From assembly GCA_014860355.1 (NCBI GenBank), contig JACZJV010000115.1, positions 1 to 64,000 on the forward strand: 64,000 nt of DNA, written 5' to 3'. Within the stretch, counting starts at the first letter, position 1; every line of letters starts with the position of its first letter. This DNA comes from Burkholderiales bacterium. Its GTDB lineage: Bacteria > Pseudomonadota > Gammaproteobacteria > Burkholderiales > SG8-39. The position numbers were made by a program, and so were the translations under genes. Positions 28,884-35,237 of this stretch are shown piece by piece. The notes below the pieces were generated by a model. The model saw nothing but the letters and a program-made list of their open reading frames with translations. It was not told the DNA's origin and made no database searches.

Positions 28884-31800
28884 CTAATCCCACTTTGTAT
28901 ATGCAGATCCCTTGCTACCCAGAGGCCGGTGGCAGCCGGACACCGAACAGTCTGTCTTCCCTTTGCTCTCGTGCGTGAGCGACTTCTTGTCCATACTGCC
29001 TAGATAGCTGGTGCCGCTTAGATGGCAGCCGATACAGAAGCCCGAGCCGTTGCCTTGCGAATTGTTGTGATTCATTCTTTCACTGGTCCAGGTCACGAAA
29101 CCGGAGTGGCAGGCGTCGCAACTCATGCTTGAACCGGCAAGCAGTTGCGATTCATAGGGAATGTGATTCGACGGTCTGCCCTGGGCACCCATGGATGCAT
29201 ACGCACCGCTGTGACAGGTCTTGCACTGGCCGGTGACACCGACAGTAATATGCTTTACGCTGGTCCATACCGTCGTGCTCAGATGGCAGGAGTCGCACTG
29301 CGCCGTGGTCGGTATGTGGCCGGCTGGTTTCATCTGTGCATTTTGCGATAGGTAGCCGCCGCTATGGCAGGTCGAGCACTGGCCGGCGAGCCCGGTGTGG
29401 CTCATGCGCGGCGTGGCCGACCAGGCGAGGTACCCGCCGGCGTGGCAGAAATCGCATTGTTGGGTAGTCGGAATATGGGTGGCGGGCTTGGCTAGAGCGT
29501 TCTCCGAAAGGTATCCGCCCGAATGGCAGGTGGAGCACTTTCCGGTCTGCCCGGTGTGATCCATATTCGCCAGCGGCACGGTCCAGTTGGTGAATCCGGT
29601 CTTGTGGCAGGTCGCGCAATTTGCCGTGGTCGGAATATGCGTGACACCCTGCGGATTCGCGTTGGCAAACGCATAGGTGGCGTTGTGGCAGCTCGAGCAC
29701 ACGGCGACGCTGGCGCCGCTGCCCACATGGTCCATCGGCGTCTTGATCGGACTGAACCGGGTGATGTAGGTGCTCGATCCGATAGGCGGCATGAAGTGAC
29801 AGAATGCGCATTGCGCCGACGTTGGAATGTGCGGCGTGGGCTTCGCCAGGCCAGGCCCGCTCGTATGGCAGCTCGTACAGGCGTTCTGGTCCGCCGCCCG
29901 GTGCGCAAAGGCGACGCCCGCCCAGGTGACTGTACCCGAGGTGTGGCAGCCGCTGGAATTGCACGCAAGCGTGGTAGCCACGTGCGTAGCCGGCTTCGTC
30001 TGCGCATTCGCCGCGACGTAAGCGCCGCCATGGCAGCTCGCACACGGCGTCGCCACGACCGCGGTGTGATCCATGGTCGCCGGAGAGAATGCGGTAAAGC
30101 TCTTGTGGCAGGCGTTGCACTGGATCGTGCCGGTCGGGATATGACTGGCGCTCTTGGTTTGCGCGTTCTCGCTCAGGTACGCGCCGCTGTGACAGGTCGT
30201 GCAACTGGTGGCGCTGACCAGGGCGTGGTTCATCGAGCGAGCAGTCCAGGCGACCGTACTCGTATGGCAGCCATCGCACTGGGCGGCGGTGGGGATATGC
30301 GTCGTCCCCTGCGGATTGGCATTGGTGTACGCGTAGGTCGCGTTGTGGCAGCTTGAGCACTGGCCGGCCAAGCCGGTGTGGTTCATCTGCGCCGGCTTGA
30401 ACGCGACGTAGTTCGTGTGGCAGGTATCGCACTGCTTTGTCGTCGGCAGGTGGTTGGCTGGTTTGGACAGCCCCGACCCGCCCGCTTTGTGGCAGTTCGA
30501 GCACACGCCGATTGCAGTGGCGTCATGGGCGAAGGTGACGGTTGCCCAGGTTGTCATGCTCCTGTGGCAGGCATCGCACTGTGCAATCGTGGGAGTGTGC
30601 GTAGGCGGCTTCATCTGCGCGTTTTCGCTCAGATACTGCCCGCTGTGGCAACTCGAGCAGTTTCCGGTCGCGCTTGCCGGATGAACCATGAGGCGTAGCG
30701 TCCAGACTGTGGTGCTCGTGTGGCAGGTATCGCACTGGCGGGCTTCCGGGATGTGGGTCGTTCCCTGCCTATCCGCACCCGCAAATACGTAGGAGCCGTT
30801 GTGGCAGATCGAGCACTGCCCGGCAGTCGAGGTGTGGTTCATGAACGCCGGCTTGAATGCGACATAGTTGGTATGGCAGGTGTCGCATTGGAGCGATGTC
30901 GGGATGTGATTGGTCGGTTTGGACAGCCCCGCCCCCCCCGCCTTGTGACAGTTCGAGCACACGCCGACGGTGCTGGCATCGTGAGCAAAGGTGGCGCTCG
31001 CCCAGGTCACCGTGCTCTTGTGGCAGGTATCGCACTGCGCGTTGGTTGCAACGTGCGTGACCGGCTTCATCTGCGCGTTCGCCGCCAGATAGCCTCCGCT
31101 ATGGCAGGTCGAGCACTGCCCGGTGAGCCCCGTGTGATCCATAGTCGCCGGGGCGAACGCCAGGAAATTCCTGTGGCAGACATCGCATTGCTGGGTGGTC
31201 GGAATATGGGTCGCGCCCTTGGCTTGCGCATTCTCCGAAAGATATCCGCCCGAATGGCAGGTCGAGCACTTTCCGGTCTGTCCCGTGTGATCCATGTTCG
31301 CCAGCGGTACGGTCCAGTTGGTGTATCCGGTCTTGTGACAGGTCGCGCAATTCGCCGAGGTCGGAATATGGTTGACCCCCTGCGGATTTGCATTGGCGAA
31401 CGCGTAAGTGGCATTGTGGCAGGTAGAGCACGCGGTGCTGCTGGCCCCGCTGGCTACGTGGTCCATCGGGGTCTTGATCGGCTTGAACCGGACGCTATAG
31501 GTATTCGCTCCGATCGCCGGCATGTTGTGGCAGACCGAACACTGCGCCGAAGTCGGAATGTGCGGCGTGGGCTTCGCCAGGCCGGGCCCGCTCGTATGGC
31601 AGCTCGCGCATTTGGTCTGGTCTGCCGCCTGGTGCGCGTAGCCAACCCCCGCCCAGGTGACCGTGCCCGAGTGGCAGCCGCTGGAATCGCACGCGAGCGT
31701 GGTGGCCACATGCGTAGCCGGCTTCGTCTGTGCATTCGCCGCGACGTATGCGCCGCCATGGCAGCTCGCGCACGGCGTCGCCACCACCGCGGTGTGATCC

Positions 31801-34800: not shown

Positions 34801-35237
34801 TTGTGGCAGCGCTCGCATTGGCCCTGCATGTCGAGCGTGTGCTGCATACGCACCTGGGTCCAGCCGTATTGCGTGTGGCATTCCCGGCAAGACTGGTTTG
34901 GGGGATTCGGAATATGCGTGGGCGGCTGGTAGGTGCTCGCCCTTCCGCCTCCCTGGATATGGCAACCGTTACAGCTTACCGGCAGGCCTCGCGAGGGGAC
35001 GCCGGACTTGTGGCAATCCTCGCAAGCTAGGCGCATGTGAACGCCTTCCAGTATGAACCCCGTCGTCGCGTGGTTGAACCCGGCGGGGGTTTGTCCATAG
35101 GCCGTGGACGCCAGCGACGCGCTCAGGCCCAACAAGACGGCCCATAATATGCGCAGGGCACCGAAGGTCAAGGTGTCGATCCGACCTCGCGGCACGACTG
35201 TTCGCGGATTGACGTCGATTGTTTTTATCGCGCTCAC
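28884..35237 (-). CDS. giant multiheme c-type cytochrome (75 CXXCH + 4 CX4CH by eye)
   Basis: GTG start at 35237 preceded by GGGAGGAG; signal-like ILWAVLLGLSASLASTAYGQ; ~2117 aa tandem CXXCH repeats. Confidence 0.93.
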   Translation of the reverse strand: MSAIKTIDVNPRTVVPRGRIDTLTFGALRILWAVLLGLSASLASTAYGQTPAGFNHATTGFILEGVHMRLACEDCHKSGVPSRGLPVSCNGCHIQGGGRASTYQPPTHIPNPPNQSCRECHTQYGWTQVRMQHTLDMQGQCERCHNGQYTSAPAKSPMHLPTTANCDACHTVGAWAPTKKMVHDATSVGRCSACHNGRTAVGKAAFHVPTNAQCDVCHTSTVTFFDARYTHDPSAWGRCSQCHNGQTASGRPPAHIPTGTTQCDVCHTNHIAFTDVKMNHTGMAGKCSNCHDGSYVSQNAQTKPATHVVTSAQCDSSGCHANTTSWAGATYAHTDATKTYAGNCSSCHFPGGAGLSKPTPHVPTTQQCDSCHKSYAAFRPARMDHTGTAGQCASCHAGTYAFANAQAKSATHILTNSSCDTCHLGFVAFTPATMDHTGLAGQCSNCHSGAYLTANAQMKPATHIVTSAQCDTCHKSTVTWASATFAHDASTIGACDTCHKPGGTGLSKPTNHVPTTLQCDTCHANYVAFSPAFMNHTGTAGRCNLCHTGAYVFAGAEKQGTNHIPDTRQCDTCHSSTTVWTQRLMVHPATATGNCSSCHSGQYLSENAQMKPPTHTPTSAQCDTCHKSMTTWATVTFAHDATAVGNCANCHKAGGTGLSKPSFHVPTTKQCDTCHTNYVAFRPAQMNHTGLAGQCSSCHNATYASSNANPQGTTHIPTTAQCDGCHTSTVGWTARSMDHALVTATSCSTCHSGAYLSENAQTKSASHIPVGTTQCSTCHRGFTAFSPATMDHTGLAGQCSTCHSGGYLTANAQMKPTTHVVTSAQCDSCHKSTVTWASATFAHDANTVGVCSNCHKPGGTGLSKPTNHIPTSLQCDTCHTNFVAFKPAFMNHTGTVGQCSTCHNGSYVFAGADRQGATHIPEARQCDTCHSSTTVWTLRLMVHPANATGNCSSCHSGQYLSENAQMKPPTHTPTSAQCDTCHKSMTTWATVTFAHDGTAIGNCSNCHKAGGTGLSKPSFHVPTTKQCDSCHTNYVAFRPAQMNHTGLAGQCSSCHNATYASTNANPQGATHIPTTAQCDGCHTSTVGWAARSMNHALVSVTSCSTCHSGAYLSENAQTKSASHIPTGTIQCNACHKSFTAFSPATMDHTAVVATPCASCHGGAYVAANAQTKPATHVATTLACDSSGCHSGTVTWAGVGYAHQAADQTKCASCHTSGPGLAKPTPHIPTSAQCSVCHNMPAIGANTYSVRFKPIKTPMDHVASGASSTACSTCHNATYAFANANPQGVNHIPTSANCATCHKTGYTNWTVPLANMDHTGQTGKCSTCHSGGYLSENAQAKGATHIPTTQQCDVCHRNFLAFAPATMDHTGLTGQCSTCHSGGYLAANAQMKPVTHVATNAQCDTCHKSTVTWASATFAHDASTVGVCSNCHKAGGAGLSKPTNHIPTSLQCDTCHTNYVAFKPAFMNHTSTAGQCSICHNGSYVFAGADRQGTTHIPEARQCDTCHTSTTVWTLRLMVHPASATGNCSSCHSGQYLSENAQMKPPTHTPTIAQCDACHRSMTTWATVTFAHDATAIGVCSNCHKAGGSGLSKPANHLPTTKQCDTCHTNYVAFKPAQMNHTGLAGQCSSCHNATYAYTNANPQGTTHIPTAAQCDGCHTSTVAWTARSMNHALVSATSCTTCHSGAYLSENAQTKSASHIPTGTIQCNACHKSFTAFSPATMDHTAVVATPCASCHGGAYVAANAQTKPATHVATTLACNSSGCHTSGTVTWAGVAFAHRAADQNACTSCHTSGPGLAKPTPHIPTSAQCAFCHFMPPIGSSTYITRFSPIKTPMDHVGSGASVAVCSSCHNATYAFANANPQGVTHIPTTANCATCHKTGFTNWTVPLANMDHTGQTGKCSTCHSGGYLSENALAKPATHIPTTQQCDFCHAGGYLAWSATPRMSHTGLAGQCSTCHSGGYLSQNAQMKPAGHIPTTAQCDSCHLSTTVWTSVKHITVGVTGQCKTCHSGAYASMGAQGRPSNHIPYESQLLAGSSMSCDACHSGFVTWTSERMNHNNSQGNGSGFCIGCHLSGTSYLGSMDKKSLTHESKGKTDCSVSGCHRPLGSKGSAYTKWD
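29290..33820. repeat. coding segmental super-repeat: two ~1.73-kb units plus one shorter ~1.07-kb unit (approximate bounds)
   Basis: KSTVTWASATFAHD[A]..VG.C..CHK.GG.GLSKPTNH[VI]PT.LQCDTCH unit begins near 33820, 32750 and 31020 (minus-strand order), each followed by the same downstream module order. Confidence 0.8.

What the first reader, a model, noticed from the sequence alone, without database searches (positions are those of the whole stretch)
28884..35237. Giant ~2,117-aa multiheme cytochrome with ~79 putative heme sites
By-eye count gives 75 CXXCH plus 4 CX4CH motifs in one ORF, with regular distal-ligand candidates (MDHTG/MNHTG, THIPT, FAHD). This is exceptionally heme-rich for a single polypeptide. 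The protein is Ser/Thr/Gly-rich, with a signal peptide but no lipobox, suggesting an extended exported wire rather than a compact domain.
Basis: seen in the sequence. Interest (0 to 1): 0.85.

Follow-up and report, generated by a model that had tools for sequence, protein, structure and literature searches.

The report
79-heme PCC3 extracellular cytochrome wire
This bacterial gene really encodes one protein built to hold about 79 heme groups, but it is the outer "wire" of an already described, experimentally untested family of cell-surface electron conduits (PCC3), some of whose members are even larger.

Summary
The minus-strand ORF 28884-35237 (2117 aa) holds 75 CXXCH and 4 CX4CH motifs. All 158 Cys lie in motifs, nearly every inter-motif interval has one spare His, and purifying selection is strong (dN/dS about 0.15). 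It is not unique. Gene by gene, the locus is the known porin-cytochrome cluster "PCC3" (He et al. 2017): a five-helix inner-membrane protein with the diagnostic WX3HX13H and SGXXG motifs, a 24-heme periplasmic cytochrome, this extracellular cytochrome and a porin of about 22 predicted strands. An 85-heme PCC3 protein was published in 2017, and relatives found here carry up to about 132 motifs. Two regularities I did not find in the papers read: (i) the 79-heme protein is a diheme repeat in near-perfect register, its two large duplications spanning 14 and 22 hemes; (ii) the periplasmic partner is a triheme repeat of almost always 21, 24 or 27 hemes, while the extracellular partner runs from 10 to 90. 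This fits a fixed-length periplasmic bridge joined to a free-length outer wire. The gene is inverted relative to most PCC3 loci examined. Wire geometry, direction of electron flow and substrate remain untested; a heme-free AlphaFold model of a segment failed.

The parts
28884..35237 (-). Extracellular multiheme cytochrome (eMHC) of a PCC3 cluster: 2117 aa, 79 heme sites (75 CXXCH + 4 CX4CH), diheme repeat throughout
   Evidence: Pfam Cytochrome_C7 E 2e-104
35094..35237 (-). Predicted Sec signal peptide of the eMHC (residues 1-48, ending STAYG|QTP), no lipobox
   Evidence: hydropathy and sequence; no SignalP run
35242..35249 (-). Ribosome-binding site GGGAGGAG, 4 nt before the GTG start
   Evidence: read output
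31248..32870 (-). First copy of the 22-heme internal duplication (residues 790-1330)
   Evidence: lag-22 similarity; dS 0.43, 89% aa identity
29520..31142 (-). Second copy of the 22-heme internal duplication (about residues 1366-1906)
25664..27538 (+). Periplasmic multiheme cytochrome (pMHC), 624 aa with signal peptide, 24 CXXCH, triheme repeat; start codon overlaps the stop of the inner-membrane protein gene
24786..25664 (+). PCC3 inner-membrane protein (IMP), 292 aa, five hydrophobic segments, WFLVH-X13-H at 85, SGIVG at 126, WAIAH-X13-H at 267
35913..38990 (+). PCC3 outer-membrane porin: beta-rich N-terminal repeats, Ala/Pro linker, TPR, beta-barrel of about 22 strands
   Evidence: homology to the porins beside other PCC3 eMHCs, AlphaFold2 pLDDT 89.9, Foldseek to outer-membrane barrels
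35456..35920 (+). Small exported protein related to the N-terminal domain of the porin
   Evidence: no Pfam family
39009..39770 (+). CcmH/CycH-type TPR protein (cytochrome c biogenesis), following the porin
   Evidence: Pfam TPR_CcmH_CycH E 5e-19; similar gene near the porin in several PCC3 loci
27672..28832 (-). Membrane GGDEF diguanylate cyclase between the two cytochrome genes; position conserved in L049 and L048
23348..24766 (-). 4Fe-4S plus FAD pyridine-nucleotide oxidoreductase, divergent from the IMP; conserved at that place in all 11 PCC3 loci compared

Best explanation
This is the extracellular cytochrome of a PCC3 porin-cytochrome conduit. Shown here at sequence level: each of 79 sites has its two Cys and proximal His, a spare His is available for nearly every heme, and the protein is a diheme repeat that has grown by duplication. 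Inferred: all sites are bis-His c-type hemes; the chain is exported through the outer membrane and stays joined to the porin; the hemes form a continuous chain along an extended rod (roughly 60 nm at the per-heme rise of OmcS filaments, a figure from memory); the 24-heme triheme-repeat pMHC bridges the periplasm (roughly 19 nm by the same figure) to the diheme b-type IMP and the quinone pool. The periplasmic bridge has a nearly fixed length set by cell geometry, while the outer wire is free to change length. The likely use is electron uptake from minerals or other solid donors in a respiring autotroph; the direction is the least certain step.
For: Motif and ligand bookkeeping and invariant or nearly invariant Cys/His columns, including the distal His, in 23 aligned segments from this and other loci. 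All four PCC3 parts present: IMP motifs invariant in 23 sequences; pMHC with 24 motifs and triheme period; porin of the family found beside other PCC3 eMHCs, predicted barrel. Same genes in the same order in Lake Pavin MAG L049. dN/dS 0.14-0.17 against that orthologue. 68 of 69 complete triheme-type cytochromes have a motif count divisible by 3, 65 of them 21, 24 or 27; the other cytochromes range from 10 to 90. The host genome also encodes RuBisCO, an MtrB/PioB porin next to a decaheme MtoA/MtrA-type cytochrome, and five heme-copper oxidases. PCC3 definition: PMC5566968.
Against: No PCC3 complex has been tested biochemically in the papers read; PMC12442390 calls it functionally unverified. 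In S. lithotrophicus ES-1 proteomes the extracellular PCC3 cytochrome Slit_1448 was not detected in any tabulated condition (PMC12016527). Localisation outside the cell is inferred only. AlphaFold2 without heme gave no usable model of the eMHC. Most genomes sampled from the genus lack it (only three of 15 have a match), so it is not a core trait there.
Confidence: 0.75

Rival explanations
1. Same conduit, opposite traffic: it exports electrons to Fe(III), Mn(IV) or partners rather than importing them.
For: Porin-cytochrome complexes can in principle work in either direction; MtrC is discussed as possibly working in reverse (PMC10734462). The conserved neighbouring FAD/4Fe-4S oxidoreductase would fit either direction.
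Against: Host carries RuBisCO, an MtoAB-type set and several terminal oxidases, and PCC3 carriers include known iron oxidisers (PMC5566968).
Confidence: 0.25
2. Electron capacitor: the many hemes mainly store charge so that respiration can continue between donor encounters, and length matters for capacity rather than reach.
For: PMC10734462 proposes storage as one role of large PCC3 cytochromes; size varies widely among loci.
Against: The register of the diheme repeat is preserved over 79 sites, more than storage alone would need; storage and conduction are not exclusive.
Confidence: 0.15
3. The protein polymerises or is shed as an OmcS/OmcZ-like extracellular filament, not held by the porin.
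For: No lipobox or membrane anchor; repeat architecture.
Against: Gene lies with porin and pMHC in most loci surveyed; one chain is already filament-sized; known filaments are built from small cytochromes.
Confidence: 0.1
4. Artefact: the repeat number is an assembly expansion or collapse.
For: Internal repeats of 85-93% DNA identity over about 1 kb; draft assembly of 202 contigs.
Against: No exact repeat of 80 bp or more; repeat copies differ mainly at synonymous sites (dS 0.43 and 0.68); open frame, no stray Cys; orthologue of 64 motifs in another MAG.
Confidence: 0.05

Closest known systems
PCC3 extracellular multiheme cytochrome (He et al. 2017, PMC5566968; Gallionellaceae, PMC10734462; Leptothrix, PMC13386937)
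   Same: Gene content (porin, eMHC, pMHC, IMP), Thr/Ser/Ala/Gly-rich repeats, about 27 aa per heme, IMP motifs, periplasmic count of 24.
   Different: 79 sites against a published median of 34 and a published maximum of 85 (2017); eMHC gene inverted and separated from the pMHC gene by a GGDEF gene; porin divergent from it.
MtrCAB / MtoAB / PioAB
   Same: Works like it: porin plus periplasmic and surface cytochromes; weak profile similarity of the repeats to MtrC/MtrF domains II/IV.
   Different: The porin has no match to Pfam MtrB_PioB; a separate MtoAB-type set exists elsewhere in the genome.
OmcS / OmcE / OmcZ cytochrome filaments
   Same: Idea of a continuous chain of bis-His hemes outside the cell.
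   Different: Those are polymers of small subunits; here the chain is one covalent polypeptide. None was named among the solved-structure sequence matches.
Triheme c7 'nanowire' repeats (GSU1996-type, TIGR04257)
   Same: Model hit to the eMHC above its cut-off; the periplasmic partner is a triheme repeat.
   Different: The eMHC itself has a diheme, not a triheme, period.

Membership tests
PCC3 porin-cytochrome cluster | IMP of about 300 aa, five TM helices, SGXXG and two WX3HX13H motifs | tested here: met
   292 aa, five hydrophobic segments, motifs at 85, 126 and 267; invariant in 23 homologues
PCC3 porin-cytochrome cluster | Periplasmic MHC with many hemes (median 21; 21/24/27 in Gallionellaceae) | tested here: met
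   24 CXXCH, signal peptide; 42-58% identical to the pMHC of PCC3 loci outside the genus
PCC3 porin-cytochrome cluster | Outer-membrane beta-barrel porin in the cluster | tested here: met
   family profile finds the porin in about 40 PCC3 loci, mostly right after the eMHC; barrel of about 22 strands, pLDDT 90
PCC3 porin-cytochrome cluster | Extracellular MHC, low-complexity, 22-39 aa per heme | tested here: met
   26.8 aa per heme, Thr/Ala/Ser/Gly-rich repeats; homologous to the cytochrome in that position elsewhere
PCC3 porin-cytochrome cluster | Collinear gene order IMP-pMHC-eMHC-porin | tested here: not met
   eMHC on the opposite strand, here and in L049, and the G008 eMHC fragment is inverted too. 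The 2017 paper calls the organisation 'largely conserved', so I treat this as variable rather than defining
PCC3 porin-cytochrome cluster | eMHC located outside the cell and joined to the porin | not testable with these tools
   needs fractionation or structure; not shown for any PCC3 in the papers read
MtrAB/MtoAB/PioAB | MtrB/PioB-family porin (PF11854) in the cluster | tested here: not met
   no Pfam family in the window porin; the only genome match is on another contig
OmcS/OmcE/OmcZ filaments | Small subunits that polymerise | tested here: not met
   single 2117-aa chain; no OmcS/E/Z named among solved-structure matches; polymerisation itself not testable

The most novel reading that the evidence does not exclude
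PCC3 is a two-gauge conductor: a triheme-repeat bridge of fixed length that acts as a periplasm ruler (21, 24 or 27 hemes) and a diheme-repeat outer wire that lengthens and shortens mostly by even numbers of hemes, since odd steps would break an alternating heme-packing register. The 79-heme protein would be one sample of a length-tunable molecular wire.
Probability: 0.4. Interest if true: 0.6.

Novelty: new member of a known kind. Interest (0 to 1): 0.42.

Why it matters
If the reading holds, one polypeptide carries a heme chain of about 60 nm, a natural design for a covalent protein wire whose length evolution has varied from 10 to about 130 units on one plan. The diheme and triheme regularities give concrete, testable predictions about heme packing and about a link between periplasm width and periplasmic cytochrome length. 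The family is widespread, often in bacteria of iron-rich settings, and still lacks a biochemical test.

Tried and rejected
A record heme count: rejected, homologues reach 123-132 motifs. Assembly artefact: judged unlikely. Structure of a 14-heme eMHC segment from 23 aligned segments: pLDDT 49, pTM 0.23, discarded, no fold search made. MtrB membership of the porin: no Pfam match. An AMIN-domain reading of the small protein and the porin N-terminus: no Pfam support, not claimed. Strict parity of total heme number across the family: not found; totals are both odd and even, and L049 (64 motifs) shows one register slip, so even-step growth is a tendency, not a rule. A literature search for diheme/triheme repeats in these proteins found nothing relevant, but subscription papers are not covered.

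Full report
WHAT IS THERE. The ORF lies on the minus strand, 28884-35237, with a GTG start behind a good ribosome-binding site. It encodes 2117 aa with 75 CXXCH and 4 CX4CH motifs. The bookkeeping is strikingly clean: 158 Cys, all in motifs, and 80 remaining His, one per inter-motif interval in 76 of 79 intervals, usually 7-8 residues before the next motif. A residue shuffle gives about one CXXCH. In 23 aligned 14-heme segments from this and other loci the heme Cys, proximal His and intervening (distal) His columns are invariant or nearly so. Against the orthologue in the Lake Pavin MAG (L049, same genus) dN/dS is 0.14-0.17. So this is a functional c-type cytochrome with about 79 bis-His sites at the level of sequence; heme occupancy is inferred.

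WHAT IT BELONGS TO. Pfam and NCBIfam see only generic multiheme families. The neighbours identify it. The 292-aa membrane protein at 24786-25664 has five hydrophobic segments, SGIVG and two WX3HX13H motifs, invariant in 23 homologues; these are the published marks of the PCC3 inner-membrane protein (PMC5566968). Its stop codon overlaps the start of a 24-heme periplasmic cytochrome (25664-27538). The 1025-aa protein at 35913-38990 is homologous to the porin found in about 40 other PCC3 loci, mostly right after the extracellular cytochrome; its C-terminal 559 aa are modelled as TPR plus a barrel of about 22 strands at pLDDT 89.9 and match outer-membrane barrels, without a specific nearest porin. 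All four PCC3 components are therefore present.

HOW UNUSUAL. The heme number is high but not a record. He et al. 2017 reported medians of 34 (extracellular) and 21 (periplasmic) and a maximum of 85 (PMC5566968). Among 677 homologues (best 120 counted) I find up to 132 motifs (P0003 may be N-terminally incomplete), and in named genomes up to 90 at the same place in the cluster.

INTERNAL ARCHITECTURE. Comparing heme segments at increasing lag, mean similarity is 0.39-0.60 at every even lag and 0.28-0.30 at every odd lag. Classifying each segment by leave-one-out gives strict A-B alternation apart from the first segment (misclassified) and the last (unclassified). The large duplications span 14 and 22 hemes, both even; the 22-heme pair has dS 0.43, less than the divergence from the L049 orthologue (0.88-1.3), so it is the younger event or has been homogenised. 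Most relatives alternate equally well, for example P0001 with 125 motifs and no slip, though some, such as a Bradyrhizobium protein, have several slips. Of 120 relatives, 113 show even-lag above odd-lag similarity. A caveat: a two-heme ancestral unit expanded by tandem duplication would produce this pattern by descent; the selective reading (preserving alternating heme packing) is an inference.

THE PARTNER. The 24-heme periplasmic cytochrome has a clear three-heme period (0.38-0.46 at lags 3, 6, 9, 12 against 0.22-0.25 elsewhere). Across the genome survey, 68 of 69 complete triheme-type cytochromes have a count divisible by three (39 with 24, 16 with 21, 10 with 27), the exception being one half of an apparently frame-split gene in L077; the 43 other complete cytochromes range from 10 to 90 with median 28. 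The classification used the period itself, so the divisibility is only partly independent of it, but the narrow size range is not built in. PMC10734462 had already listed 21, 24 and 27 for Gallionellaceae. The natural explanation is that one partner spans a gap of fixed width and the other does not.

LOCUS VARIANT. In most loci surveyed the order is IMP, pMHC, eMHC, porin on one strand. Here the eMHC is inverted, a GGDEF gene sits between the two cytochromes, and the porin, preceded by a small exported protein related to the porin's N-terminal domain, is divergent. L049 has the same arrangement, and in G008 the eMHC fragment at the contig end is inverted too. Only three of the 15 genomes sampled from the genus (this one included) have the eMHC. 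A 4Fe-4S/FAD oxidoreductase divergent from the IMP is conserved in all 11 loci compared and is not mentioned in the PCC3 section of the 2017 paper.

MECHANISM. Proposed path: external donor, eMHC heme chain, porin/pMHC junction, periplasm-spanning pMHC, diheme b-type IMP, quinone pool. Shown: gene content, motifs, conservation. Inferred: localisation, heme occupancy, extended geometry (the heme-free AlphaFold2 segment failed), direction. The host has RuBisCO, an MtoAB-like set and five heme-copper oxidases, which leans towards electron uptake in an autotroph, without proof. In ES-1 proteomes PCC3 porin, IMP and pMHC were seen but the extracellular cytochrome was not (PMC12016527), which is a caution.

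VERDICT. A confirmed observation, and a large, well-preserved member of a known but experimentally untested family. The value lies less in the number 79 than in the repeat rules that a protein of this size makes visible.

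Noticed in passing
window 23348-24766 (-): 4Fe-4S plus FAD pyridine-nucleotide oxidoreductase, 56-95% identical in all 11 PCC3 loci compared, always divergent from the IMP gene; a likely unrecognised PCC3 component.
   Followed up: partly
window 27672-28832 (-): Membrane GGDEF diguanylate cyclase inserted between the two cytochrome genes, conserved in the two same-genus loci L049 and L048; possible link between c-di-GMP and the conduit.
   Followed up: partly
window 35456-35920 (+): Small exported protein related to the N-terminal domain of the adjacent porin; present as a separate gene also in L049, with no Pfam family.
   Followed up: partly
window 21382-23277 (+): Putative lipoprotein with PKD and Lcl_C domains; a homologue lies at the same side of the cluster in L048.
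   Followed up: no
L132 (G000:C35) 245-1243 and the following porin: The same genome encodes a decaheme DmsE/MtoA-type cytochrome directly before an MtrB/PioB porin, so it has two kinds of porin-cytochrome conduit.
   Followed up: partly
L101: A MAG labelled Candidatus Methanoperedens carries a PCC3 IMP plus a 24-heme periplasmic cytochrome; binning contamination or transfer, not resolved.
   Followed up: no
L089, L095: Two environmental MAGs are labelled Bordetella parapertussis in their records yet carry PCC3-type genes; the names look doubtful.
   Followed up: no
L091: A Deltaproteobacteria MAG has a 21-heme, a 12-heme (triheme type) and a 49-50-heme (diheme type) cytochrome in a row with a PCC3 IMP and porin.
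   Followed up: no
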